Below, piece by piece: positions 23,515-49,549 of a stretch of DNA of 64,000 nucleotides. Each line of letters begins with the position of its first letter. Within the stretch, counting starts at the first letter, position 1. The translations under genes and the position numbers were made by a program. The notes beneath the pieces are model-generated. The model was not told where the DNA came from. It ran no database searches and saw only the letters and a program-made list of their open reading frames with translations. This DNA is from Leucobacter chromiiresistens (GTDB lineage Bacteria; Actinomycetota; Actinomycetes; Actinomycetales; Microbacteriaceae): contig NZ_FNKB01000001.1 in NCBI RefSeq assembly GCF_900102345.1, positions 2,108,001-2,172,000 of the forward strand. The letters are read 5' to 3'.

Positions 23515-24518
23515 GATCGTTCCTCGGGTGCAGCGCTCAAGGCCTCGACGATGACGTCGGTGTCGTGGGCGAGCAGGTCGAGGTACGTCGGCACCGGCCC
23601 GTCGGGCTCGGAGAGCGAATCGACGTACAGGGTGCCCCCGAAGGCGGCTCCCGACGCCTCCGCCACCTGCTTCATCGGTCGATCTGAGACGGTCGACTCG
23701 CAGAACACCGCTGGCACATCGTGATCCCTCACGAACTCGATGGTGTCTGCGATCTGACGCGGCGTCGCCTGCTGCTCGGCGTTCACAGGCCAGATGTAGC
23801 GCTCGGTGAGGCCCGCATCCCGCGCCAGGTAGGAGAAGGCCCCCTCGCAGGTGACGAGGGCGCGGTGCGACTCGGGGAGCGCGGCGACGGCATTCGCGAG
23901 GCGATCCTGCACCTGCTGCAGTTCCGCCTGATACGCGTCGCCCCGCTCGGCGAACTCGTCGGCGTGCTCGGGGGCCAGATCGCTGAAGGCGTCCACCATG
24001 CGGTCGACGTAGAGCTGCGCGTTGCGCGGGCTCATCCACGCGTGCGGATTCGGCTTGCCGGCGTACGCGTCGCCGGCGATGTCGATGGGATCGATGCCGT
24101 CGGAGACGACGACATGGGGAACATCGGCTTGGTCGACGAAGCGTGCGAACCACGCCTCGAGCCCGAGACCGTTGTCGAGAATCAGGTCGGCCTCGGAGGC
24201 CTTGGCGATGTCGAGCGGGGTGGGCTCGTAGCCGTGGATCTCGGCGCCTACCTTCGTGATGGAGCGCACGTCGAGACGATCGCCGCCGACCTCCCGGGCC
24301 ATGTCGGCCAGCACGGTGAATGTGGTGAGCACGACGGGGCGCTCGTCGTCGGCGGCTCCCGCGCCGGCCGTGTCATCGGCCGTCGACGGCGCACCGCAGC
24401 CGGTGAGGATCAGCGCCGCGCCGACCAGCGCCATCGCGCTTCGGAGCCCCCGCCGCTTCCACCGCTGCGTCTGCTCGCTCTCCCGCTTCCTCCGCACCTC
24501 CACGGCCCGAATCTGCAC
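23511..24518 (-). CDS. Metal-binding lipoprotein of ABC transporter, Mn-type ligands
   Basis: Substrate-binding protein (cluster A-I, ZnuA/PsaA family), 335 residues from GTG 24518, which has GGAAGG upstream; the frame is open further but crosses the operator. N-terminal signal ends in the lipobox LTGC. Candidate metal ligands are His in IHGYEPTP, His in NPHAWMS, Glu in CEGAFSYL and Asp in LYVDSLS. A His-His-Glu-Asp set is that of Mn-type PsaA/MntC proteins, whereas ZnuA uses three His, and there is no His-rich loop. Manganese is therefore the favoured substrate, iron possible. Confidence 0.92.
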   Translation of the reverse strand: MQIRAVEVRRKRESEQTQRWKRRGLRSAMALVGAALILTGCGAPSTADDTAGAGAADDERPVVLTTFTVLADMAREVGGDRLDVRSITKVGAEIHGYEPTPLDIAKASEADLILDNGLGLEAWFARFVDQADVPHVVVSDGIDPIDIAGDAYAGKPNPHAWMSPRNAQLYVDRMVDAFSDLAPEHADEFAERGDAYQAELQQVQDRLANAVAALPESHRALVTCEGAFSYLARDAGLTERYIWPVNAEQQATPRQIADTIEFVRDHDVPAVFCESTVSDRPMKQVAEASGAAFGGTLYVDSLSEPDGPVPTYLDLLAHDTDVIVEALSAAPEERS

Positions 24519-24548
24519 GCTCCACCGCCTTCCAGTCTCGACGAACCT

Positions 24549-24572
24549 GAAAGTTCGGCATACCGAACTTTC
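24549..24572. promoter_or_regulatory. Palindromic operator of the metal transporter operon
   Basis: Perfect inverted repeat GAAAGTTCGG - CATA - CCGAACTTTC. A minus-strand -10, TACCAT (24583-24578), places the transcript start inside it, so a bound repressor would block initiation. Layout fits a DtxR/MntR-type metalloregulator; the regulator itself is not in the window. Confidence 0.7.
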
Positions 24573-24618
24573 CTGCGATGGTAGCGGAACGGCGTCGGAA
24601 TGGCGAGTGCATACCGCG

Positions 24619-24624
24619 TACACT
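24619..24624 (+). promoter_or_regulatory. Leaderless-type -10 of crcB1
   Basis: TACACT, 7 nt before the GTG at 24632. It leaves no 5' leader for a fluoride riboswitch. Confidence 0.5.
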
Positions 24625-24631
24625 GATCCGA

Positions 24632-25075
24632 GTGACCTCCCGCGCCAGCCTGATCGAGCTCGGGCTGGTCGTGCTCGGGGGAGCGGTCGGGTCGCTCGGC
24701 CGCGCAGCGGTCTCCGCAGCCCTCGCAGCGCCGACCGACGGGCACGGGCTGCCGTGCGCGACCCTCCTGGTGAACGTGACCGGAGCGTTCGCGCTCGGGC
24801 TGCTCGTCGAGGTCATCGCCCACCGGAGCGATCCGGCACGACGTCGCATCCGCCTGCTCCTCGGCACCGGGCTGCTCGGCGGCTTCACCACGTACAGTCT
24901 GCTGGCCGGAGAACTCGCCGAGTCGCTGCTCGCGGGTCGATACGCTCTCGCGGCCGTCTACGCGGCAGCGACACTCCTCGGGGGCGCGCTGGCGGGCTGG
25001 CTCGGTCTCCTCGCCGGGCGGGGCATCGCGCAGGCCGGCGCACGCGATGCGCAGGGAGCAGGGCCGCACCGATGA
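24632..25075 (+). CDS. crcB: Fluoride channel subunit CrcB/Fluc, first copy
   Basis: Half of a dimeric fluoride exporter. The 147-residue protein has four hydrophobic helices and the family motifs GGAVGSLGR, TLLVNVTGAFALG (pore Asn) and GLLGGFTTYSL (Phe and Thr lining the pore). Start GTG follows from the promoter spacing. ATGA overlap with a second crcB makes a heterodimer likely, the usual arrangement in actinobacteria. Confidence 0.94.
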   Translation: MTSRASLIELGLVVLGGAVGSLGRAAVSAALAAPTDGHGLPCATLLVNVTGAFALGLLVEVIAHRSDPARRRIRLLLGTGLLGGFTTYSLLAGELAESLLAGRYALAAVYAAATLLGGALAGWLGLLAGRGIAQAGARDAQGAGPHR

Positions 25076-25443
25076 ACAAGGCGGGACTGGCGCTCGCCAT
25101 CGCGGCGGCCGGCGGAATCGGCGCGGGCGCCCGGCACCTCATCGACCAGGCGCTCGGCTCGCGCGTGCGCGGCCGCTTTCCGTGGGGGATCCTCGTCGTG
25201 AACCTGACCGGGGCGTTCGCGATCGGCGTGCTGGCGGGTCTCGCCGCCGATCATCCGCTCGCCGTCGTCGCGACGACGGGCTTCCTCGGCGGCTACACGA
25301 CGTTCAGCACGGCGAGCCTCGATACGGTGCAGCTCCTCGGGCAGCGACGCTACCGCGCCGCGCTCGCCAACGGGGCCGGGATGCTCGTGGCGGCCGTCGC
25401 GCTCGCGGTGTGCGGAATCCTGCTCGGGCGATCCCTCGTCTGA
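25072..25443 (+). CDS. crcB: Fluoride channel subunit CrcB/Fluc, second copy
   Basis: Partner of the preceding subunit, 123 residues and four helices. Motifs GGIGAGARHLID, ILVVNLTGAFAIG and GFLGGYTTFSTASLD are present. Overlaps the first copy by 4 nt (ATGA). The two copies differ clearly in sequence, as expected of paired rather than duplicated subunits. Confidence 0.95.
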   Translation: MNKAGLALAIAAAGGIGAGARHLIDQALGSRVRGRFPWGILVVNLTGAFAIGVLAGLAADHPLAVVATTGFLGGYTTFSTASLDTVQLLGQRRYRAALANGAGMLVAAVALAVCGILLGRSLV

Positions 25444-25509
25444 CCCGCGCCCGTCACGCAGCCCGCCGCCGCTCGCGCAGCCTCGGCGTCGTCGTCGCGG
25501 CGCCGTCCG

Positions 25510-26373
25510 TCAGCGCACGCGCTGCGCCGAGAACCGGAGATCCGGGTGCGCGTACGCGTCCTGCGCCTCGACGAGCGCGAGCTCCCGCGCGCCGCTCGCG
25601 AAGGTGCGCTGGAGGAGTGCGAATACGCTGGCGGTCGTGCGTTCGAGCGCCTCGGCGCCGCTCCCCGTGCTCCGGAAGTGCGCGGTGAAGAGCGCAGCGG
25701 TCACGTCGCCCGAGCCGTTCACCTTGAACGGGATGCGCGGCGTCTCGATGAGCCAGGCGCCCTCATCGGTCACCGCGAGCATCTCGATGGACTCCTCGGG
25801 GCGCTCCGGCCGATCCACGCTCGTGACGAGCACCGTGGAGGGGCCGTCGGCGCGCACGAGGTCGACGGAGGCGAGCGTCGACTCGAGCGTGTCGGGCGAC
25901 GTGCCCGTCAGGAACCCGAGCTCGAACTGGTTGGGCGTGATGAGGTCCGCCCGCGGCACGACCCGGTCGCGGATGAGGTTCTGCACCTCGGGCGACACAT
26001 GGCACCCGGATCGCGCATTGCCCAGCACCGGATCGCAGGCATAGATCGCGCCGGGGCTCGCCCGCTTCACGCGCGCCACGGCGTCGAGAATCGCGTCGCC
26101 GATGCTGTCGCCGCCCTGGTACCCCGAGAGCACCGCGTCGACGTCGGCCAGGCCGCCCCGCTCCTCGATGCCCGTGACGATCTCGCGAACGTCGTCGCCC
26201 GACATCATCGGGCCGCGCCACGAGCCGTACCCGGTGTGGTTCGAGAACATCACCGTGTAGATCGGCATGACCTCGACGCCGATGCGCTGCAGCGGGAAGA
26301 CCGCAGCGGAGTTGCCCACGTGACCGTACGAGACCGATGACTGGATGGAGAGGATGCGCATGCAGACGATCAT
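25510..26373 (-). CDS. pdxY: Pyridoxal kinase
   Basis: ATP-dependent phosphorylation of pyridoxal in vitamin B6 salvage. The 287-residue ribokinase-fold protein has ILSIQSSVSYGHVGNSAAVFPLQR at the N-terminus, YGSWRGPMM, YACDPVLGN, ITPNQFELGFL and the anion-hole loop FKVNGSGDVTAALF. Start ATG 26373 has GGGGA 8 nt upstream; ATG 26361 is in frame but without a site. The ribosome site lies in the 3' arm of a long hairpin. Convergent with crcB. Confidence 0.94.
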   Translation of the reverse strand: MIVCMRILSIQSSVSYGHVGNSAAVFPLQRIGVEVMPIYTVMFSNHTGYGSWRGPMMSGDDVREIVTGIEERGGLADVDAVLSGYQGGDSIGDAILDAVARVKRASPGAIYACDPVLGNARSGCHVSPEVQNLIRDRVVPRADLITPNQFELGFLTGTSPDTLESTLASVDLVRADGPSTVLVTSVDRPERPEESIEMLAVTDEGAWLIETPRIPFKVNGSGDVTAALFTAHFRSTGSGAEALERTTASVFALLQRTFASGARELALVEAQDAYAHPDLRFSAQRVR

Positions 26374-26380
26374 GCCAGTG

Positions 26381-26419
26381 GTCCCCGCGATGGACCAGTT
26401 ACGGCTTCATCGCGGGGAC
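26381..26419 (-). promoter_or_regulatory. Hairpin enclosing the pdxY ribosome binding site
   Basis: Perfect 12-bp inverted repeat GTCCCCGCGATG / CATCGCGGGGAC with a 15-nt loop, beginning 8 nt upstream of the pdxY ATG. Read on the minus strand, the GGGGA of the ribosome site is in the 3' arm. It could be a terminator of the upstream gene, a translation switch, or an operator. Confidence 0.6.
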
Positions 26420-26437
26420 CACCCGGCGGAGACGCGG

Positions 26438-26923
26438 TCAGAGCTCGGTGGTGCCCGAACGCCCGGGGCCCTCACTGCCCGTGAGCTTCGCCGCCGCGAT
26501 CTTCACGGCCGCTGCGACCTTTCCGCCGGGAATGCCCCAGTACTGCGCCGACTCGCCGTTCACGCGGAGCAGACCGAGGTTCGGATCCTCGAGTCCGCCG
26601 TCGAAGTAGGCCTCGACCTCGCCGTCCCACAGCTCCGCGGCCTTCGCGCGATCGGAGACGAACTCGGCGACGCCCGAGACCGAGAGCCAGCTTCCCGTCT
26701 CGGCGAACGCCAGGTTGACCTGCGGGTTCGCGCGGATGGCATCGGCCTGGTCGCCCTGCAACCCGATGAAGAACCAGACGTCGCCGTCGTCCGTGACCTC
26801 CTGCGGGGTCATCGGGTGCGACACGATCTTCCCGTCGGGAGTCGCCGTCGACAGCATCACGAAGCGCTCCTCGCGCATCACCTTGATCACGGTCTCCGGG
26901 GTCAACTCGGTCGATTCGCTCAT
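26438..26923 (-). CDS. Pyridoxamine 5'-phosphate oxidase-family split-barrel protein (general stress protein 26 type)
   Basis: Probable flavin-binding split-barrel protein of 161 residues. It has VIKVMREERFVMLSTATPDGKIVSHPM, DVWFFIGLQGDQADAIRANPQVNLAF and the C-terminal YWGIPGGKVAAAVKIAAAKLTG, matching the GSP26/Pyridox-oxidase-3 group, which usually bind FMN or F420 and have no proven PNPOx activity. Start has GGAGG. Adjacent to pdxY, but the B6 link is probably accidental. Confidence 0.87.
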   Translation of the reverse strand: MSESTELTPETVIKVMREERFVMLSTATPDGKIVSHPMTPQEVTDDGDVWFFIGLQGDQADAIRANPQVNLAFAETGSWLSVSGVAEFVSDRAKAAELWDGEVEAYFDGGLEDPNLGLLRVNGESAQYWGIPGGKVAAAVKIAAAKLTGSEGPGRSGTTEL

Positions 26924-27110
26924 GTTCGTCCTCCAGTCGATCGTCTGCGCACACGGGTGCGTGCCCAGAAGCAGTCTCGCGCGGCTCCGGGCGGCGCGAA
27001 AGGCCGTTGACACGACGCTCGGGGCCGGTGGCCCGGAGAACGGGGCCGCGGCCCGAGATCGGTAGCGCGGCTGACCGCGAGCACGAGTGCAGCCGCCCGG
27101 CATCGCTCGA
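26924..27110. other. Non-coding part of the pdxY-oxidase intergenic region
   Basis: First third of a 596-bp gap between two minus-strand genes. A plus-strand TTGACA (27007-27012) has no -10 partner. I see no gene here; codon pattern and start sites are absent. Confidence 0.5.
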
Positions 27111-27164
27111 GGGTGAGCAGTTCCGGCGGCTTTCCCGCGGCCGAACCGCCGCGACTGCTCACCC
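27111..27164. repeat. Palindromic unit 1 of a four-unit array
   Basis: 54 nt with perfect 11-bp arms GGGTGAGCAGT and ACTGCTCACCC, and TTCCGGCGG after the left arm. Confidence 0.8.
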
Positions 27165-27192
27165 GAGGCGAGGGCCCGCGGAATCCGCCCGG

Positions 27193-27247
27193 AGGTGAAC
27201 GCTTCCGGCGCCCGTGCCACGGTGCGATCGACGCAAACTGCTCACCC
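27193..27247. repeat. Palindromic unit 2, degenerate left arm
   Basis: 55 nt. The left arm is AGGTGAACGCTTCCGGCG and the right arm GCAAACTGCTCACCC; only the outer GGTGA/TCACC pairs well, but position and orientation match the other units. Confidence 0.7.
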
Positions 27248-27285
27248 GCAGCAGTAGGGGCTCGTGATCGTTCGATGCCGCGCGT

Positions 27286-27340
27286 GGGTGAGCAGTCTCG
27301 GGAGCCGTGGCCGCCTTCCCGTGACTGCAATCGCTCACCC
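27286..27340. repeat. Palindromic unit 3
   Basis: 55 nt with perfect 8-bp arms GGGTGAGC and GCTCACCC; the inner part diverges from the other units. Confidence 0.75.
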
Positions 27341-27376
27341 GCGGGGGAGGGGGGCTCCAGATCGGCCCTTCGATTC

Positions 27377-27439
27377 CCGGGGGTGAGCAGTTCCGGCGAG
27401 CGGAGCAGCCTCCAACCGACCGCAACTGCTCACCCCCGG
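27377..27439. repeat. Palindromic unit 4, longest stem
   Basis: Perfect 16-bp arms CCGGGGGTGAGCAGTT and AACTGCTCACCCCCGG with a 31-nt loop beginning CCGGCG. The core from GGGTG to CACCC is 55 nt as in units 2 and 3. Confidence 0.85.
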
Positions 27440-27513
27440 AAGGAGGCGCCGGGCCGGCGGCGCCGGGCAGCGTCACCCCCGGAAGGAGGCGCCGGGCGGG
27501 CGGCGCCGGCGAC
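27431..27513. repeat. Tandem direct repeat of 43 bp next to the palindrome array
   Basis: CACCCCCGGAAGGAGGCGCC starts at 27431 and again at 27474, each followed by a near-identical GGCGGCGCC-rich tail. The first copy begins within the right arm of palindromic unit 4. The GGCGCC pairs could act as terminators for the minus- or plus-strand reading. Confidence 0.75.
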
Positions 27514-27519
27514 TTCGAA

Positions 27520-28890
27520 TCAGATCGCGCGGTCGGGGGTGAGGATGCCGTTCGGGTCGAGCGCGTTCTTGATCGCGCGCTGCACGTCGAGCGAGACCGG
27601 GTCGAGCTGCCAGGCGAGCTCGTGGCGCTTCACGGACCCGATGCCGTGCTCGCCCGAGATGGTGCCCCCGAGCGAGAGCGCGAGGCGGGTGATGTCGTCG
27701 ATCACGGCGTCGGCCTCGCGGATCCCCTCGGGAGTGTCGGGGGATTCGACCGTGCTGTGGAGGTTCCCGTCGCCCGCGTGCGCGACGGTCGAGACGCGCT
27801 TGCCGTGCTGCGCCGAGATCTGCGCGATTCCGTGGAAGACCTCGGCGAGCGCCGCGACGGGCACACCGACGTCGCACGAGATCTTCAACCCGCGCGCGTT
27901 GAGCGCCGGGTTCGAGAGGCGGCGCGCTTCGAGGAGCGCGTCGGTCTCCGAGATCTCGGTGTCGTCGGCTCCGAGTTCGCGGCAGAGCGCCGTGATGGTC
28001 TCGGCCTGCACCTGCGCATCCCAGCCGACGGTCTGCCCGACGAGCATGGCCCCGGCCGGCGCCGTCAACCCGCTCGGGTGGAACGACTCGATGATCTCGA
28101 CGCTCAGGGAGTCCATCAGCTCCAGCACCTCCGGGCGCACGGCGCTGTTGACGATCGCGGTGACCGCTCGCCCCGCATCCTCGAGCTCCGGGAAACTCGC
28201 GCGGAAGGTGCGCGGCGAGCCGGGCGGCACGGGCTTGAGCCGGACGGTGGCCTCGGTGATCACGCCGAGCGTGCCCTCCGAGCCGACGAAGAGGCGCGTG
28301 AGGTCGTACCCCACGACGTTCTTCCGGGTGCGCGCGCCGGTGCGCATCACGCGGCCGTCGGCGAGCACCACCTCGAGCGCCGACACGGCATCGCTGGTGA
28401 CGCCGTGCGCGACGCAGCGCAGTCCGCCGGCGTTCGTCGCGATGTTGCCGCCGACCGTGCTCATCCGCGCGCTCGCCGGGTCGGGTGGGAAGAAGAGGCC
28501 GTGGCGACGAGCCGCAGCATCGAGGTCTGCGGTGATCACGCCGGGCTGCACCGTTGCGAGCCGGTTGGCGACGTCGATGTCGAGGATCGCGGTCATGCGA
28601 TCCACCGACACGACGAGGCCGCCCGGGTACGCCATCGCGCCTCCTGCGAGCCCGGTGCCCGCACCGCGCACGCTCACCCGCACCCCGAAGCGGTCGGCCC
28701 AGGCGAGGGCGGCCGAGACGTCGGCTGTCGATTCGGCGAGCACCACCGCGAGCGGAGCCCCGTCGTCGACGGCCCGCGACGTGTCGCGCGCGTAGGGCGC
28801 GATGAGGTCGGGATCGCGGAGGAGTCGCGGCCCGAGGGCGGACTCCAGCGCCGAGAGATCCGGGTGCGGTGCGGTGCGGGTGTCGGTCAC
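27520..28890 (-). CDS. FAD-linked oxidase (GlcD / D-lactate dehydrogenase-like)
   Basis: Probable flavin dehydrogenase for a 2-hydroxy acid such as glycolate or D-lactate. The 456-residue protein has a PCMH FAD domain (SVRGAGTGLAGGAMAYPGG, MSTVGGNIATNAGGLRCVAHG, GYDLTRLFVGSEGTLGVITEA) and a C-terminal oxidase domain ending in STVAHAGDGNLHSTV, GGTISGEHGIGSVKR. GTG 28890 is chosen from the strong AAGGAGG site. No GlcE/GlcF partner is present, so it is likely a single-subunit enzyme. Substrate is inference. Confidence 0.9.
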   Translation of the reverse strand: MTDTRTAPHPDLSALESALGPRLLRDPDLIAPYARDTSRAVDDGAPLAVVLAESTADVSAALAWADRFGVRVSVRGAGTGLAGGAMAYPGGLVVSVDRMTAILDIDVANRLATVQPGVITADLDAAARRHGLFFPPDPASARMSTVGGNIATNAGGLRCVAHGVTSDAVSALEVVLADGRVMRTGARTRKNVVGYDLTRLFVGSEGTLGVITEATVRLKPVPPGSPRTFRASFPELEDAGRAVTAIVNSAVRPEVLELMDSLSVEIIESFHPSGLTAPAGAMLVGQTVGWDAQVQAETITALCRELGADDTEISETDALLEARRLSNPALNARGLKISCDVGVPVAALAEVFHGIAQISAQHGKRVSTVAHAGDGNLHSTVESPDTPEGIREADAVIDDITRLALSLGGTISGEHGIGSVKRHELAWQLDPVSLDVQRAIKNALDPNGILTPDRAI

Positions 28891-28949
28891 GTGCGCCTCC
28901 TTGCGTTCGGGAACCAGCGTAGCGGCGACGGGACGCGCCGCGTGAGAGG

Positions 28950-29906
28950 ATGAACGGCATGATCGGAACGAGCGGGGCGGGGCGGTACGCTCCGAGCCCG
29001 TCGGGCGACCTCCACGTCGGCAATCTGCGCACGGCGCTGCTCGCCTGGTGCTTCGCCCGCGCGAGCGGCCGCCGGTTCGTCGTGCGCGTCGAGGATCTCG
29101 ATCGCGCCCGAGACTCCGGGGCGGCGTCTCGGCAGCTGGACGACCTGGCGCGTCTCGGCATCGACTGGGACGGCGCCCCGGTGCTGCAGTCGGAGCTCGG
29201 CGCCGCGCACGAGGCGGTGATCGGCGGGCTGCGCGATGCCGGCCTCGTCTACGAGTGCACGTGCACGCGCGCCGATATTCTCGCGGCGCCGAGCGCTCCG
29301 CATGCGCCGCCCGGCGCGTATCCCGGAACGTGCCGCGACCGGAGCGACGCGGAGCGAGCGCGAGAACGGGAGCGCATCGCTCCGCGACGGCCCGCTCTGC
29401 GGCTGCGCGTGCCGGCGGGCACGGTCGCTCCGCGATTCGCCGATGCGCTGCTCGGCGAGGTGACCGGCGACATCGACGACTTCGTGCTGCGCCGGGGCGA
29501 CGGCACGGTCGCGTACAACCTCGCCGTCGTCGTCGACGACGCCTCGATGGGGGTGGATCAGATCGTGCGGGGCGACGATCTCGCCTCATCGACCCCGAGG
29601 CACATCCTCCTGCAGCGGCTGCTGGGGCTGCCGTCGCCGCCGGAGGTCGTCTACGCGCACGTGCCCCTGGTGCTCGGCGCTACGGGAGCCCGTCTGGCGA
29701 AGCGCGACGGTGCGGTCACGCTCGCCGATCTGCGCGCCGACGGCATCGATGCTGCCGCGGTGCTGGGCGCGCTCGCGCGATCGCTGGGGCTCGCCGCCCC
29801 CGGGGAGCGCGTCTCCGCGGCCGAGCTCGTCGCGCGCTTCGACCCCGCAGCCCTGCCGAGGTCGCCGTGGACGTGGCCGGTGGCGGAGCGGCTCGCCGCT
29901 CCGTGA
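28950..29906 (+). CDS. gluQ: Glutamyl-Q tRNA(Asp) synthetase
   Basis: Attaches glutamate to queuosine in the tRNA(Asp) anticodon. The 318-residue protein is a truncated GluRS: class I HIGH-type motif GDLHVGNLRTAL, KMSKS-type motif RLAKRDG, the Cys-rich YECTCTRADIL insert with CRD further on, and no anticodon-binding domain. ATG 28950 or ATG 28959 could be the start. No queuosine synthesis genes are in the window. Confidence 0.92.
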   Translation: MNGMIGTSGAGRYAPSPSGDLHVGNLRTALLAWCFARASGRRFVVRVEDLDRARDSGAASRQLDDLARLGIDWDGAPVLQSELGAAHEAVIGGLRDAGLVYECTCTRADILAAPSAPHAPPGAYPGTCRDRSDAERARERERIAPRRPALRLRVPAGTVAPRFADALLGEVTGDIDDFVLRRGDGTVAYNLAVVVDDASMGVDQIVRGDDLASSTPRHILLQRLLGLPSPPEVVYAHVPLVLGATGARLAKRDGAVTLADLRADGIDAAAVLGALARSLGLAAPGERVSAAELVARFDPAALPRSPWTWPVAERLAAP

Positions 29907-29914
29907 GCGAACGG

Positions 29915-30259
29915 CTACTTCTTCAGCGCCTTCACGATGCGCGCCAGCGCGCGGCCGGCGACCCACACGAAGGGGGTGCCGACGGCGAGCAGCGCGATGA
30001 TGTTCGGCTCGAACCGCGTCGTGCCCTCGCGGGTGATGTACGAGCCGACCGGGATGGAGAATCCGCCGCCGCCTCCGCCGGAGCCCTCGCCCTGAGCGGC
30101 GCCCTCGCCGCCGCCCGCGCCCTCGCCGGCGCCGAAGCCGTATGCGGTGTACGCCACGGGGATGAGGGTCGTGCCGTCGACCTCGACGGGATCGCCGTAC
30201 GCGGAGTGCACGCCGACCTCGACCAGGGTATCTGCGATCTGCTTCGTGAGGTGAGTCAT
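29915..30259 (-). CDS. GerW/YtfJ-family protein
   Basis: A 114-residue protein with the family pattern: an N-terminal helix-turn part (TLVEVGVHSAYGDPVEVDGTTLIPVAYTAYGFGAG), a Gly-rich loop containing GEGSGGGGGGFSIPVG, then FEPNIIALLAVG and a hydrophobic C-terminus. GerW is named for spore germination in Bacillus, but the family is broad in non-sporulating actinobacteria and its role there is unknown. TAGGGT on the minus strand (30272-30267) is 7 nt from the ATG, so leaderless. Convergent with gluQ, 8 nt apart. Confidence 0.83.
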   Translation of the reverse strand: MTHLTKQIADTLVEVGVHSAYGDPVEVDGTTLIPVAYTAYGFGAGEGAGGGEGAAQGEGSGGGGGGFSIPVGSYITREGTTRFEPNIIALLAVGTPFVWVAGRALARIVKALKK

Positions 30260-30282
30260 GCGCCCCACCCTACTCGTTCGGT

Positions 30283-31110
30283 CTAGTCTTCGGCAGCCCC
30301 GTGACGCGAGGCGCGCAGGGCGGCGGCGACCGGTCGCTTCGCCTCGATGTGGTCGCCCGACGACACGTGCTTGATGCGGCGGATGACCCACGGCACGAAG
30401 TGCTCGCGGGCCCACACCACGTCTTCGCGGCGCGCCTCGCGCCAGCTCCGCTCCGGCAGGTCGGGCACGTCGAGCGGCGCGAGCTCGTGCGGCACGCCGA
30501 GGGCGGCGAGCGCAGCGCGAGCGATCGTATGGTGGCCGAGCGCATTCAGGTGCAGGCGATCCCCGGCCCAGTAGCGGCTGTCGTGCAGCTCGTCGAGCGC
30601 CCACTGGTCGACCACGATGCAGTCGTGGCGCTGCGCGACCTTGCGCACGTTCTCGTTGTAGATGGCCACCTTGCCGCGGATGGAGCGGAAGACCGGCTGG
30701 AACGCGGTGTCGACGCCGGTGAACAGCATGATGGTGGCGCCGCCCGCGCTCAGCCGCTCGACGATGCGCTCGAGCTTCGCCGCGACCTCATCGGGGTCGG
30801 TGCCGGGGCGGATCACGTCGTTGCCGCCCGCGCACACGCTGATCAGGTCTGGCCGCAGGTCGAGCGCGGCCTCCACCTGCGTGTCGGCGATCTGCTGGAT
30901 GAGCTTGCCGCGCACGGCGAGGTTCGCGTAGGCGAAGTCTTCGTCGAATCCGCTGAGCACCTCCGCGAAGCGGTCCGCCCAGCCGCGCAGCCCGCCGGGG
31001 CTGTCGGGATCGGGATCGCCCACGCCCTCGGTGAAGGAATCGCCGAGGGCGACGAAACGCGACCACGGAAGTTCGACGCGCTCCTGCTGAGCGCTGCCAT
31101 CCTGTGCCAT
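30283..31110 (-). CDS. SGNH/GDSL-family hydrolase
   Basis: Probable serine esterase of 275 residues. Block I FVALGDSFTEGVGD, block III CAGGNDVIRPG and block V DRLHLNALGHH supply the Ser, Gly, Asn and Asp-His catalytic residues. No signal peptide, so it is probably cytoplasmic. The C-terminus REHFVPWVIRRIKHVSSGD resembles the actinobacterial subgroup. Ribosome site AGAGGTAGG. Divergent from the helicase. Confidence 0.92.
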   Translation of the reverse strand: MAQDGSAQQERVELPWSRFVALGDSFTEGVGDPDPDSPGGLRGWADRFAEVLSGFDEDFAYANLAVRGKLIQQIADTQVEAALDLRPDLISVCAGGNDVIRPGTDPDEVAAKLERIVERLSAGGATIMLFTGVDTAFQPVFRSIRGKVAIYNENVRKVAQRHDCIVVDQWALDELHDSRYWAGDRLHLNALGHHTIARAALAALGVPHELAPLDVPDLPERSWREARREDVVWAREHFVPWVIRRIKHVSSGDHIEAKRPVAAALRASRHGAAED

Positions 31111-43283: not shown

Positions 43284-44135
43284 ATGGCAGAGCGGGGTCG
43301 GAAGCGGCGCAATTCCGAGGGGCGCATGAGCCTCGGAGAGCACCTCGTCGAGTTCCGCAAGCGGCTCCTGATCTCGGCTGCGGCCATCGTCGTCGCGCTC
43401 GTGGCCGGCTGGTTCCTGTCGACCTGGGTGTGGGAGATGCTCCGCAAGCCCATCAACGATCTCGAGATGCAGGGCCGCGATGCGATCATCTCGTACGGCG
43501 ACATCTCGAGCGGCTTCGACACGAAGGTGCAGATCGCGCTCTTCATCGCGGTGCTCATCGCCTCTCCCGTGTGGCTGTACCAGGTGTGGGCGTTCCTCGC
43601 GCCGGGTCTCACCCGGCGTGAGAAGCTCACGGGCATCGGGTTCATCGGTGCGGCCGTGCCGCTCTTCCTCGGCGGGGCCTACGCGGGCTGGCTCGTCCTC
43701 CCGAACATCGTGCGCCTCATGGCGAGCTTCCAGCCGGAGGAGGACGCGTTCTACCTCACGGCGCGCAACTACCTCGACTTCGCGATCAAGCTGCTCCTGG
43801 CCGTCGGGGTCGGCTTCGTGCTGCCGGTGCTGCTCGTGATGCTCAACTTCATCGGCGTGCTCCGCGGCGCGTCGATCATCCGGAGCTGGCGGGTCGCGAT
43901 CCTCGTCATCGTGCTGTTCGCAGCGATCGCCACCCCCGCGGCCGACCTGATGAGCATGTTCCTGCTCGCCGCACCCATCATCGTGCTGTACTTCGCGGCC
44001 GCCGGCGTCGCGATCCTCCACGATCGACGCGTCGACAAGCGGCGCGCGACCGAGCTCGCCGAGTACGACCTCGACGAGACGGCCGACCATGAAGCCGGAA
44101 CGGGCGATTCCGGGCCCGCGAGAGGACGTCGATGA
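43284..44135 (+). CDS. tatC: Twin-arginine translocase subunit TatC
   Basis: Receptor of the Tat pathway, binding twin-arginine signal peptides and recruiting TatB/TatA. The 283-residue protein has six hydrophobic helices, the N-terminal MSLGEHLVEFRKRLL motif (equivalent to the E. coli HL..LR motif) and FVLPVLLVMLNFIGVL. The C-terminal tail is charged. ATGA overlap with the following helicase gene. tatA is not in the window. Confidence 0.95.
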   Translation: MAERGRKRRNSEGRMSLGEHLVEFRKRLLISAAAIVVALVAGWFLSTWVWEMLRKPINDLEMQGRDAIISYGDISSGFDTKVQIALFIAVLIASPVWLYQVWAFLAPGLTRREKLTGIGFIGAAVPLFLGGAYAGWLVLPNIVRLMASFQPEEDAFYLTARNYLDFAIKLLLAVGVGFVLPVLLVMLNFIGVLRGASIIRSWRVAILVIVLFAAIATPAADLMSMFLLAAPIIVLYFAAAGVAILHDRRVDKRRATELAEYDLDETADHEAGTGDSGPARGRR

Positions 44136-46432
44136 TCACTGCAGGGCACCCGGAACAGCCCGGCGGCAGTGCGCTCGACGCGTTCTCCGCGCGTCTCGAG
44201 TACCCGCTCGACGGGTTTCAGCGCACCGCGTGCGAGCGCCTCGAGGAGGGCCGCAGCGTGCTCGTCGCCGCGCCCACCGGATCGGGCAAGACGACGGTGG
44301 CGGAGTTCGCGGTGTACCTCGCGCGGCGCGAGCGGGATGCGCGCATCTTCTACACCGCCCCGATCAAGGCTCTGTCGAATCAGAAGTTCCGCGAGCTCTG
44401 CGACGAGTACGGGGAGGACGAGGTGGGGCTGCTCACCGGAGACGTGAATCTGCGCTCCGACGCCCCGATCATCGTGATGACGACCGAGGTGCTCCGCAAC
44501 ATGATCTACGCGGGGTCGGATGCCCTCGACGATCTCGAGTTCGTGGTGCTCGACGAGGTGCACTACCTGGGCGACCGGTTCCGTGGTGCGGTGTGGGAGG
44601 AGATCATCCTGCATCTCCCGCCCGCCGTGCGCCTCGTGTCGCTCTCGGCGACGGTGTCGAACGCCGAGGAGTTCGGCGACTGGATGCATGCGGTGCGCGG
44701 CGACACCGACGTGATCCTCTCGGAGCACCGACCCGTGCCGCTCTATCAGCACGTGCTCACCTCGCGCGCGCTGCTGCCGCTGTACGTCGATCGCGCCGGG
44801 GAGCTCGCCACGGGCGGGCGCGTCAACCCCGAGCTGTACGCGCTCGACCGGCGCGGCGGGTGGCGGGATCGCGACGGCGACCGGGGCCGGGATCGCGGTC
44901 GCGGCCGGGGCGAGCGCTCCCGGGGGCGGCCGCCGGTGCGGCGCACGCGTCGCATCTCGCGCGCCGACATCGCACGGGCGCTCGACGAGACGGATCTCGT
45001 TCCGGCGATCGTCTTCATCTTCAGCCGGAACGGCTGCGACCAGGCGGTGCGCCAGTGCCTCATGGAGGGCATCACGCTGACGAGCCGCGAGGAGCGCGAC
45101 GAGATCCGCCGCATCGCCCGGGCCGAGGTCGCGGGGATGAGCGAGGAGGAGCGACGCGTGCTCGGCGTGCGCGAGTGGCTCGCCGGGCTCGAACGGGGCG
45201 TCGCGGCGCATCACGCCGGTCTCCTCCCGGCGTTCAAGGCGGTCGTCGAGCGCTTGTTCCAGCGTCGGCTCGTGAAGCTCGTCTTCGCGACGGAGACGCT
45301 GGCGCTCGGCATCAACATGCCCGCGCGCGCCGTCGTCATCGAGCGGTTGGACAAGTTCAACGGCGAGCAGCGCGTGCCCCTCACCTCGGGCGAGTTCACG
45401 CAGCTCACCGGTCGGGCCGGCCGACGCGGCATCGACGACGAGGGCCACGCGGTCGTCGTGTGGGGCGACGACGTCGACCTGGAGGCGCTCGCGCATCTCG
45501 CCGGCGCGCGCTCCTTCCCGGTGCGGTCGAGCTTCCGCCCGACCGCGAACATGACGGTCAACCTGCTGCAGCGCATGGACCGCGCGCACGTGCGCGAGAT
45601 GCTCGAGCTCTCGTTCGCGCAGTTCCAGGCGGATCGAGCGGTCGTGGATCAGGCGCGCGAACTGCGCGCCGAGCAGGAGTCGCTCGCGGGCTACGACGCG
45701 GCTGCGCGGCGCGCGCAGGGCTCGGACCGGAAGCGCTGGGAGGATCGCGCGCGCAAACTTCGGCGTCGCGTCGAACGCGGCCGACGCCAGATCGCGTCGC
45801 GCACGGGCACGATCGCGCGCACCTTCGACCGCGTGGTGGAGCAGCTGCTCGAGCTCGGCTACCTGGAATCCGACGGTGCGCAGGACCCGAGGGTGACCTC
45901 GTGGGGCAACCTCCTCCGCCGCATCTACGGCGATCGCGACCTGCTCGTCGCCGAGTGCATCCGCGAAGACGCCTGGCGCGGGCTCGACGCCGCGGGCCTC
46001 GCGGTGATGTGCTGCGTGCTGAGCTACGAGCCGCGGCGCGACGACGAGGGCGACCCGCGTCTGCCCGGGGGAGCGGCGTTCGCCGCCGCGCACGACCGTG
46101 TGCTCGACATCTGGGTGCGCCTCGACGATCTCGCCGAGCGGTCGCGCCTGCCCCGCGGCGAGATGCCGCATGCCGGCCTCGCGATGACGATGCACGCGTG
46201 GGCGACCGGCCGCCCGATCGAGCAGGTGCTCGAGATGGCGGGCATCGGCGCGGGCGACTTCGTGCGCTGGACGAAGCAGACGATCGATCTGCTCGACCAG
46301 GTGGCGCAGGCGTGCGAGACGGCGGTGCTCGACGGCGTCGAGCCGGATCGGCTGGGCGGCCTCGCCCGTCTCGCGCGCGAGGCGAAGCGCGCCGTGAAGC
46401 GGGGCATCGTCGAGGCCTCGAGCACCTCGTGA
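44132..46432 (+). CDS. helY: Ski2-like DEAD-box RNA helicase (HelY type)
   Basis: A 766-residue Ski2/Dob1-type helicase. Walker A VAAPTGSGKTTVAEFA at about 48, motif Ia YTAPIKALSNQKF, DEVH in VLDEVHYLGDRFRG, SAT in VSLSATVSN, and QLTGRAGRRGIDDEGHAVV. The region near residue 240 has a run of Arg/Gly/Asp repeats (RDRGRGRGERSRGR) probably a flexible RNA-contact loop. The C-terminal helical part is shorter than in many HelY proteins (often above 850 residues). A role in RNA processing is likely. Coupled to tatC and to lnt. Confidence 0.92.
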   Translation: MITAGHPEQPGGSALDAFSARLEYPLDGFQRTACERLEEGRSVLVAAPTGSGKTTVAEFAVYLARRERDARIFYTAPIKALSNQKFRELCDEYGEDEVGLLTGDVNLRSDAPIIVMTTEVLRNMIYAGSDALDDLEFVVLDEVHYLGDRFRGAVWEEIILHLPPAVRLVSLSATVSNAEEFGDWMHAVRGDTDVILSEHRPVPLYQHVLTSRALLPLYVDRAGELATGGRVNPELYALDRRGGWRDRDGDRGRDRGRGRGERSRGRPPVRRTRRISRADIARALDETDLVPAIVFIFSRNGCDQAVRQCLMEGITLTSREERDEIRRIARAEVAGMSEEERRVLGVREWLAGLERGVAAHHAGLLPAFKAVVERLFQRRLVKLVFATETLALGINMPARAVVIERLDKFNGEQRVPLTSGEFTQLTGRAGRRGIDDEGHAVVVWGDDVDLEALAHLAGARSFPVRSSFRPTANMTVNLLQRMDRAHVREMLELSFAQFQADRAVVDQARELRAEQESLAGYDAAARRAQGSDRKRWEDRARKLRRRVERGRRQIASRTGTIARTFDRVVEQLLELGYLESDGAQDPRVTSWGNLLRRIYGDRDLLVAECIREDAWRGLDAAGLAVMCCVLSYEPRRDDEGDPRLPGGAAFAAAHDRVLDIWVRLDDLAERSRLPRGEMPHAGLAMTMHAWATGRPIEQVLEMAGIGAGDFVRWTKQTIDLLDQVAQACETAVLDGVEPDRLGGLARLAREAKRAVKRGIVEASSTS

Positions 46433-49500: not shown

Positions 49501-49549
49501 GTGTTCGATAATCGGACGGCTATGCGGTCGTTTTCCGATTATCGAACAC
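49501..49549. repeat. Perfect 16-bp inverted repeat, AT-rich for this genome
   Basis: GTGTTCGATAATCGGA and TCCGATTATCGAACAC around a 17-nt loop, 14 nt after the SDR stop. Each arm itself contains the small palindrome CGATAATCG. CGTGCGC occurs on both flanks. May be a terminator, a paired protein-binding site or a tiny mobile-element relic. Confidence 0.75.

What the first reader, a model, noticed from the sequence alone, without database searches (positions are those of the whole stretch)
27106..27440. Array of four oriented ~55-nt palindromes between a split-barrel flavoprotein gene and a GlcD-like gene
Seen: four units of 54-55 nt, starting at 27111, 27193, 27286 and 27381, each bounded by GGGTGAGCAGT-type and ACTGCTCACCC-type arms. 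All keep the same polarity (CCGG after the left arm, GCAA or GCGA before the right arm). Unit 4 has a perfect 16-bp stem while unit 2 has a decayed left arm. Loops differ in sequence, so selection seems to act on the arms. This fits a REP-like or non-autonomous element family, or a structured RNA or protein-binding array. I know of no named family with this arm; novelty is inference.
Basis: seen in the sequence. Interest (0 to 1): 0.72.

Follow-up and report, generated by a model that had tools for sequence, protein, structure and literature searches.

The report
Palindromes paired with a cognate nuclease
Short DNA palindromes scattered between genes of some actinobacteria turn out to be the matching partners of a little-studied DNA-cutting enzyme whose genes they flank, which looks like an undescribed kind of selfish DNA that resembles a known one but uses an unrelated enzyme.

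Summary
The four-unit palindrome array at 27111-27435 is real and not local. A genome-wide model search finds 16 copies at seven intergenic loci of the window's genome (a Leucobacter, by inference). Two arrays flank a 392-aa gene 77 kb away: an AbiEi-like N-terminal half (AbiEi proteins bind inverted repeats) fused to a Vsr / I-Bth0305I-type (DUF559) nuclease. This is general: of 80 named loci encoding this nuclease, nearly all Microbacteriaceae, 67 have an adjacent 40-75-nt palindrome, 28 on both sides, at eight times the density of more distant intergenic DNA. Arms match across one gene and follow the nuclease: 10 of 10 nuclease pairs at least 70% identical share arms, while paralogues in one genome mostly do not. 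A second nuclease of this genome has its own family of at least 22 dispersed 66-nt palindromes. The window's array is absent from a close relative whose flanking proteins are 98% identical. No Y1 (RAYT) transposase was found in this genome, so it is not a REP/RAYT system, but it behaves like one. Best reading: an undescribed class of nuclease plus cognate, spreading palindromes. The pairing is near certain. That the nuclease itself spreads the palindromes is inferred, not shown.

The parts
27111..27164 (+). palindrome unit 1 (54 nt, arms GGGTGAGCAGTT.. / ..CGACTGCTCACCC)
   Evidence: z -5.1; E 3.9e-13; this unit trained the model
27193..27247 (+). palindrome unit 2 (55 nt, left arm decayed)
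   Evidence: z -0.3; E 6.4e-10; training copy
27286..27340 (+). palindrome unit 3 (55 nt)
   Evidence: z -4.2; E 7.7e-10; training copy
27381..27435 (+). palindrome unit 4 (55 nt; palindrome extends to 27377-27439)
   Evidence: z -6.3; E 7.1e-13; training copy
27430..27509 (+). two 37-nt repeats (43-nt step): right-arm end of unit 4 plus spacer, resembling the spacer of the array at C1:2214086
   Evidence: (family D2)
26438..26923 (-). pyridoxamine-phosphate-oxidase-like flavoprotein gene; its 5' end faces the array
   Evidence: PF16242, E 8.6e-40
27520..28980 (-). GlcD-like FAD-linked oxidase gene; its 3' end faces the array (start codon approximate)
   Evidence: PF01565, PF02913

Best explanation
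The array is a cluster of copies of a lineage-specific palindromic element, the cognate DNA site of a two-part nuclease. The partner gene lies outside the window (C1:2212809-2213984, between ctaA and ctaB). Its N-terminal half resembles the AbiEi antitoxin fold and its C-terminal half has the Vsr / I-Bth0305I nuclease fold. SHOWN by sequence: palindromes flank these genes, often on both sides with the same arms; arms differ between nucleases and follow nuclease identity; the three specificities searched genome-wide have dispersed copies; the window's array is absent at the same place in close relatives. INFERRED: the AbiEi-like part binds the palindrome, probably as a dimer on the 54-66-bp site; the Vsr-like part nicks or cuts it (as duplex, cruciform or single-strand hairpin during replication); repair or strand transfer then copies palindromes, and sometimes the gene with them, to other intergenic sites. 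Solitary palindromes would thus be non-autonomous derivatives, as REPINs are of RAYT genes. Arrays would grow by tandem copying of palindrome plus spacer.
Against: No target-site duplication or clean insertion boundary was seen: the G022 site differs by replaced as well as inserted bases. No transposition, excision or binding was measured. 13 of 80 loci have no adjacent palindrome at the threshold used. In a phylum-wide PF04480 sample only about 10 of 30 loci, judged by eye, have one beside the gene. The relative orientation of 5' and 3' palindromes is mixed (15 direct, 10 inverted, 3 tied), unlike a simple transposon end pair. One site (C1:2469776) is shared with G022 as a decayed copy, so not all copies are young. 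The rank correlation of arm and nuclease similarity is low (Spearman 0.11), because arms are at background below 60% identity. The AbiEi structural match has a high rmsd (6.6 over 181 residues).
Confidence: 0.66

Rival explanations
1. Free-standing homing or site-specific endonuclease: the palindromes are its cutting sites, and copies spread passively by break repair or gene conversion between homologous palindromes, not by active transposition.
For: Nearest fold is the homing endonuclease I-Bth0305I; a paper assigns a DUF559 gene to the EDxHD homing family (PMC9403480, passages); nuclease plus palindromes differ as a block beside a conserved ctaB flank; in one G017/G020 pair homology starts exactly at the palindrome edge.
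Against: Complete palindromes, not half-sites, flank both sides of many genes and are dispersed, so the gene copy would not be protected from its own enzyme; the window's array appears where three relatives have no palindrome.
Confidence: 0.2
2. Operators: the AbiEi-like half autoregulates its own gene through the palindromes; dispersed copies form a regulon.
For: AbiEi-family proteins autoregulate via inverted repeats (PMC7319586, passages); four copies lie about 100 nt upstream of the nuclease gene.
Against: Copies also lie 3' of nuclease genes and between convergent genes, come in arrays, differ between close relatives, and neighbouring genes are unrelated. Autoregulation may still be true in addition.
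Confidence: 0.1
3. RNA-level function: terminator hairpins, a structured small RNA, or an RNA antitoxin array.
For: Stable hairpins in three of four units; an array upstream of a nuclease gene recalls type III antitoxin arrays (recalled).
Against: No Rfam match in 24000-30500; no T-run after the right arms of the 16 copies; covariation at shuffle level in the second family and weak in this one; copies on both sides of genes and far from them.
Confidence: 0.03
4. Local accident or an assembly artefact.
For: None beyond GC-rich low-complexity surroundings.
Against: 16 copies in the genome, shuffles, and the same arrangement in 67 of 80 named loci.
Confidence: 0.01

Closest known systems
REP / REPIN palindromes with RAYT (REPtrons, TIRtrons)
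   Same: Palindromes flank a gene, dispersed copies in intergenic DNA, cognate arms that co-diverge with the gene (PMC2817692, PMC3116915, PMC3733652, passages read).
   Different: The enzyme is an AbiEi-Vsr nuclease, not a Y1-HUH transposase; no GTAG/CGTC head; units are single 54-66-nt hairpins; copies in tens, not hundreds.
EDxHD homing endonucleases (I-Bth0305I)
   Different: Free-standing in intergenic DNA, flanked by complete palindromes that are also dispersed; DNA-binding half is AbiEi-like.
Vsr very-short-patch-repair endonuclease / DUF559 / MTES_1575
   Different: The library searches listed no palindrome partner for them.
AbiEi antitoxins (type IV toxin-antitoxin)
   Different: No toxin seen beside it (neighbours ctaA, ctaB); fused to a nuclease.
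MITEs of classical insertion sequences
   Same: Short, non-coding, inverted-repeat elements with a trans-acting enzyme presumed.
   Different: No DDE transposase identified as partner; no target-site duplication seen.

Membership tests
REP/REPIN-RAYT | Y1-HUH (PF01797) transposase gene associated with the palindromes | tested here: not met
   0 matches in the own genome; the control search rings in 5 of 14 known genomes
REP/REPIN-RAYT | GTAG (or CGTC) tetranucleotide at one end of the unit | tested here: not met
   units begin mostly GGGTGAG and end CTCACC(C/T); no such head
REP/REPIN-RAYT | gene flanked by cognate palindromes that co-diverge with it | tested here: met
   (with a different enzyme)
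REP/REPIN-RAYT | high copy number (usually over 100 per genome, PMC2817692 abstract as listed) | tested here: not met
   16 copies and at least 22 of the second family; the model search scored 150 of 10,071 first-look candidates
EDxHD homing endonuclease | I-Bth0305I-type catalytic fold | tested here: met
EDxHD homing endonuclease | E-D-x-H-D catalytic residues | tested here: inconclusive
   E237, D270, E281, D283, H287, D297 invariant in 25 of 25, but not mapped residue by residue on the structure
EDxHD homing endonuclease | homing into alleles that lack the gene | not testable with these tools
   needs a cross or transformation experiment
AbiE type IV toxin-antitoxin | AbiEi-type N-terminal region | tested here: met
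AbiE type IV toxin-antitoxin | toxin gene (AbiEii) next door | tested here: not met
   the nearest genes called on either side are ctaA and ctaB; seen for the own locus only
MITE of a DDE insertion sequence | target-site duplication and autonomous partner with the same ends | tested here: inconclusive
   no duplication seen; partner present but not a DDE transposase
Rfam RNA family | match to a covariance model | tested here: not met
   0 matches at gathering score in 24000-30500
Vsr repair endonuclease | T:G mismatch nicking linked to dcm | not tested
   fold similarity only

The most novel reading that the evidence does not exclude
A new class of selfish DNA element: an AbiEi-Vsr (DUF559/EDxHD-like) nuclease that recognises a private 40-75-bp palindrome, spreads it in trans between genes and is carried along by it, having independently reached the REP/RAYT life style with an unrelated enzyme. 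Dozens of private nuclease-palindrome specificities exist in Microbacteriaceae, several per genome, and probably in other actinobacteria.
Probability: 0.6. Interest if true: 0.9.

Novelty: categorically new. Interest (0 to 1): 0.83.

Why it matters
It gives a partner and a testable role to DUF559/MTES_1575 nucleases, whose function is largely undescribed in what I could search. It explains otherwise orphan intergenic palindromes. It offers a second, independently built case of a gene plus dispersed palindromes beside REP/RAYT, so the long-open question of how such palindromes spread can be asked with a different enzyme chemistry. The many natural nuclease-palindrome pairs are also a ready code for learning how an AbiEi-type domain reads inverted repeats.

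Tried and rejected
Rejected or not supported: (1) a RAYT partner: no PF01797 in the genome. (2) Known or structured RNA: no Rfam match; covariation in this family is weak (84.2% of cells paired against 81.7 +/- 1.2 in shuffles, 20 of 500; covariation score reached by 37 of 500; 3 pairs with changes on both sides against 4.2) and at shuffle level in the second family (226 of 500). Individual copies decay on one side at a time, while whole families rewrite both arms. (3) Uptake-sequence idea: not settled. Seven exact single arms outside palindromes are in the capped listing, and with one mismatch the arm has 135 hits against 37 for the reversed control; the 32 arms of the palindromes do not explain all of that excess, and codon usage may. 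(4) Phage link: no nuclease relative in IMG/VR by tblastn (526 pattern stretches, none confirmed), although the structural library lists phage DUF559 proteins; 39 viral stretches carry one half-arm, 0 of them a full palindrome. (5) Plasmid link: 3 weak Arthrobacter hits at 27-31% identity, not followed. (6) Consistent direct orientation of flanking palindromes: not supported (15/10/3). (7) 'All 16 copies lie on one strand' is partly circular, since I took the + strand of each copy to build the model.

Rows dropped or limits: of 30 loci, an ORF was recovered for 25; 21 of these 25 have a palindrome within about 330 nt at the score used; L081, L089, L099 and L106 do not. L081 is the own locus, whose copies that score misses. 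L111 and L112 were fetched because palindromes were already seen there, and one search used a looser score. In one search, 24 rows were examined, and 2 (one half palindrome, one out of register) were left out of alignment A3. The 80 loci are the best 80 of 203 and overlap in part with those, so the two sets are not independent. Same-genome pairs cover the loci that I labelled by organism by hand; one (0.68 identity) reaches 9.5. A first version of the intergenic control counted the near side by a looser rule; one search repeats it with one rule. The own-genome model search scored 150 of 10,071 first-look candidates, so copies may be missed. Palindromes at C1:2173896 and 2174082 are absent from both relatives, but the spacer aligns poorly there. 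The contig of G022 ends beside the nuclease and starts at the 2469776 site, so only one flank was compared in each case.

Literature: all searches covered the held open-access library only: DUF559+palindrom, DUF559+transpos, REP-like/Vsr/non-autonomous, MTES_1575 (46), palindromic repeats+Microbacteriaceae, AbiEi+inverted repeats, DUF559+AbiEi, 0 papers, RAYT/REPIN, very short patch repair+palindrom, I-Bth0305I. No listing showed a DUF559-palindrome link. Papers read as passages only: PMC7319586, PMC3710099, PMC3733652, PMC3116915, PMC9403480, PMC3943268, PMC2817692.

Full report
OBSERVATION. The four units are present at the stated coordinates and are far beyond chance. The two genes around them are a pyridoxamine-oxidase-like flavoprotein and a GlcD-like FAD oxidase, both on the minus strand.

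COPIES IN THE GENOME. A pattern with both arms finds four places. A covariance model from 16 aligned copies finds those 16 in the 3.2-Mb genome, with the next hit at E 0.3 (150 of 10,071 first-look candidates scored). They lie at seven intergenic loci: C1:613614 (2 copies), 1964103 (1), 2135111 (4, the window), 2173896 (2), 2212665 (2), 2214086 (4, 72-nt steps) and 2469776 (1). Neighbouring genes are unrelated to each other. In a 60-genome sample of relatives (own included, 36 others of the genus) the model finds nothing as strong elsewhere (best E 2.4e-6). Of 15 of those weaker hits read, about ten are ~50-55-nt palindromes with other arms.

THE ASSOCIATION IS GENERAL. Of 25 homologues with a recovered reading frame, 21 have a palindrome within about 330 nt. 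All 16 further nuclease loci fetched, ten of them only 27-31% identical to the own protein, have one at a looser score; two of these 16 were chosen because of the palindrome. The two DUF559 genes of the own genome found by Pfam have them on both sides, with arms of their own. In 80 named loci from Leucobacter, Herbiconiux, Subtercola, Cryobacterium, Agreia, Naasia, Rathayibacter, Microterricola and others (the best 80 of 203, nearly all Microbacteriaceae), 67 have an adjacent palindrome and 28 have one on both sides. Density is 1.50 and 1.09 per kb beside the match against 0.00-0.26 in other bins. Counting intergenic DNA only, it is 2.48 per kb within 600 nt against 0.31 per kb beyond 1 kb; counting all DNA, 1.10 against 0.08. 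In a phylum-wide Pfam sample about 10 of 30 loci, judged by eye, show one beside the gene, two of them with matching arms on both sides; the short DUF559 proteins mostly do not.

ARMS FOLLOW THE NUCLEASE. Arms on the two sides of a gene agree in 25 of 28 loci beyond the 95th percentile of unrelated pairs. All 10 nuclease pairs of at least 70% identity share arms (similarity 13-16), pairs under 60% average 5-6, and 23 pairs of nucleases within one genome average 5.5 (highest 9.5). The overall correlation is r 0.277, with 0 of 2000 permutations reaching it; the rank correlation is low, 0.11, because only close pairs share arms. The arm GAGATGACCCNTTCGCGG has 15 hits in G017 and 9 in G020, the two genomes where it was seen to flank a nuclease, and single one-mismatch hits in 3 of the other 52 genomes. 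A second nuclease of the window's genome (C1:1823058) has 53 arm hits with none in the reversed control and at least 22 66-nt palindromes, some decayed. The nuclease is under purifying selection (dN/dS 0.12-0.23 in 10 of 10 pairs).

MOVEMENT. Where this genome has 596 nt between the GlcD-like and flavoprotein genes, relative G022 (97.8% and 97.5% identical proteins) has about 121 nt, G060 about 93 and G063 about 78, all without the array (spacer lengths are my arithmetic). The palindrome at C1:2469776 is shared with G022 as a decayed copy. Beside ctaB the DNA is 96.3% identical between this genome and G022 over 972 nt, yet of the nuclease and palindromes only a 59-nt piece aligns, whereas G022 and G060 share a nuclease (76% DNA identity over 1150 nt) and its arms; the ctaA side of G022 is not in its contig. 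Against G060, the own nuclease region aligns in pieces of 133 nt (69%) and 63 nt (76%). So nuclease and palindromes appear to be replaced as one module. Between G017 and G020 one homologous stretch begins exactly at the palindrome edge.

MECHANISM. Shown: pairing, private arms, dispersal, presence/absence, block replacement. Inferred: binding by the AbiEi-like half, cutting by the Vsr-like half, and copying of palindromes by repair or strand transfer. The absence of within-family covariation (weak) fits copies cast off by a master and decaying neutrally. Complete rewriting of both arms between families says that the active site must stay palindromic. The 54-66-bp length fits a dimeric enzyme of the I-Bth0305I kind, whose target is nearly 60 bp (PMC3943268, passage).

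COMPARISON. It works like REP/RAYT (flanked gene, co-divergence, dispersed copies; PMC2817692, PMC3116915, PMC3733652, passages) but fails the defining tests: no Y1 transposase, no GTAG/CGTC head, low copy number. It shares the nuclease fold with EDxHD homing enzymes, but complete palindromes flank and surround it. I found no description of a DUF559-palindrome link in the held library. Most subscription journals are not covered.

HOST.

On re-reading the calls I corrected the intergenic control (eightfold instead of tenfold), the one-sided comparison at ctaB, and the arm excess.

Noticed in passing
G000:C1, loci such as 189313, 531409, 635612, 1066607 and C2:239356 (L340-L359, L034, L125): A second palindrome family (66 nt, GTGAGNGATTCGGCNTCGGTGAG arms) dispersed through the genome, flanking the DUF559 gene at C1:1823058.
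   Followed up: partly
G000:C1:1315419-1316390 and C1:82796-83050 (L123, L124): Two more nuclease genes of this kind, each with its own palindromes on both sides (GAGCGGTCAGTTCGGTGC..; GCAGTGGATCC..).
   Followed up: partly
ctaA-ctaB junction: both genes seen in G000, G060, G029; ctaB side in G022; ctaA side in G064, G025, G021: The same intergenic spot holds a nuclease of this family in seven genomes, with differing palindrome arms.
   Followed up: partly
L265:1500 and L273:1500 (G020:C22:21672, G017:C101:2401): DNA homology between the two species starts exactly at the left edge of the palindrome; the other side is unrelated, as if a break happened there.
   Followed up: partly
window 49501-49549: 49-nt palindrome GTGTTCGATAATCGG..CCGATTATCGAACAC between two plus-strand ORFs; family unknown.
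   Followed up: no
window 26378-26422: 45-nt palindrome GTGGTCCCCGCGATG..CATCGCGGGGACCAC just beyond the 3' end of the flavoprotein gene, present in altered form in relative G022; may be a terminator.
   Followed up: no
G000:C1:7411-8240 and 43661-44490: Identical pattern hits 36,250 bases apart suggest a duplicated stretch in this genome.
   Followed up: no
G000 family copies: All 16 copies were read in the same orientation on the contig; partly a result of how they were taken, but worth testing against replication direction.
   Followed up: no
G000 genome-wide: The single arm AACTGCTCACC with up to one mismatch has 135 hits against 37 for the reversed control, more than the palindromes alone explain; codon usage may be the cause.
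   Followed up: no
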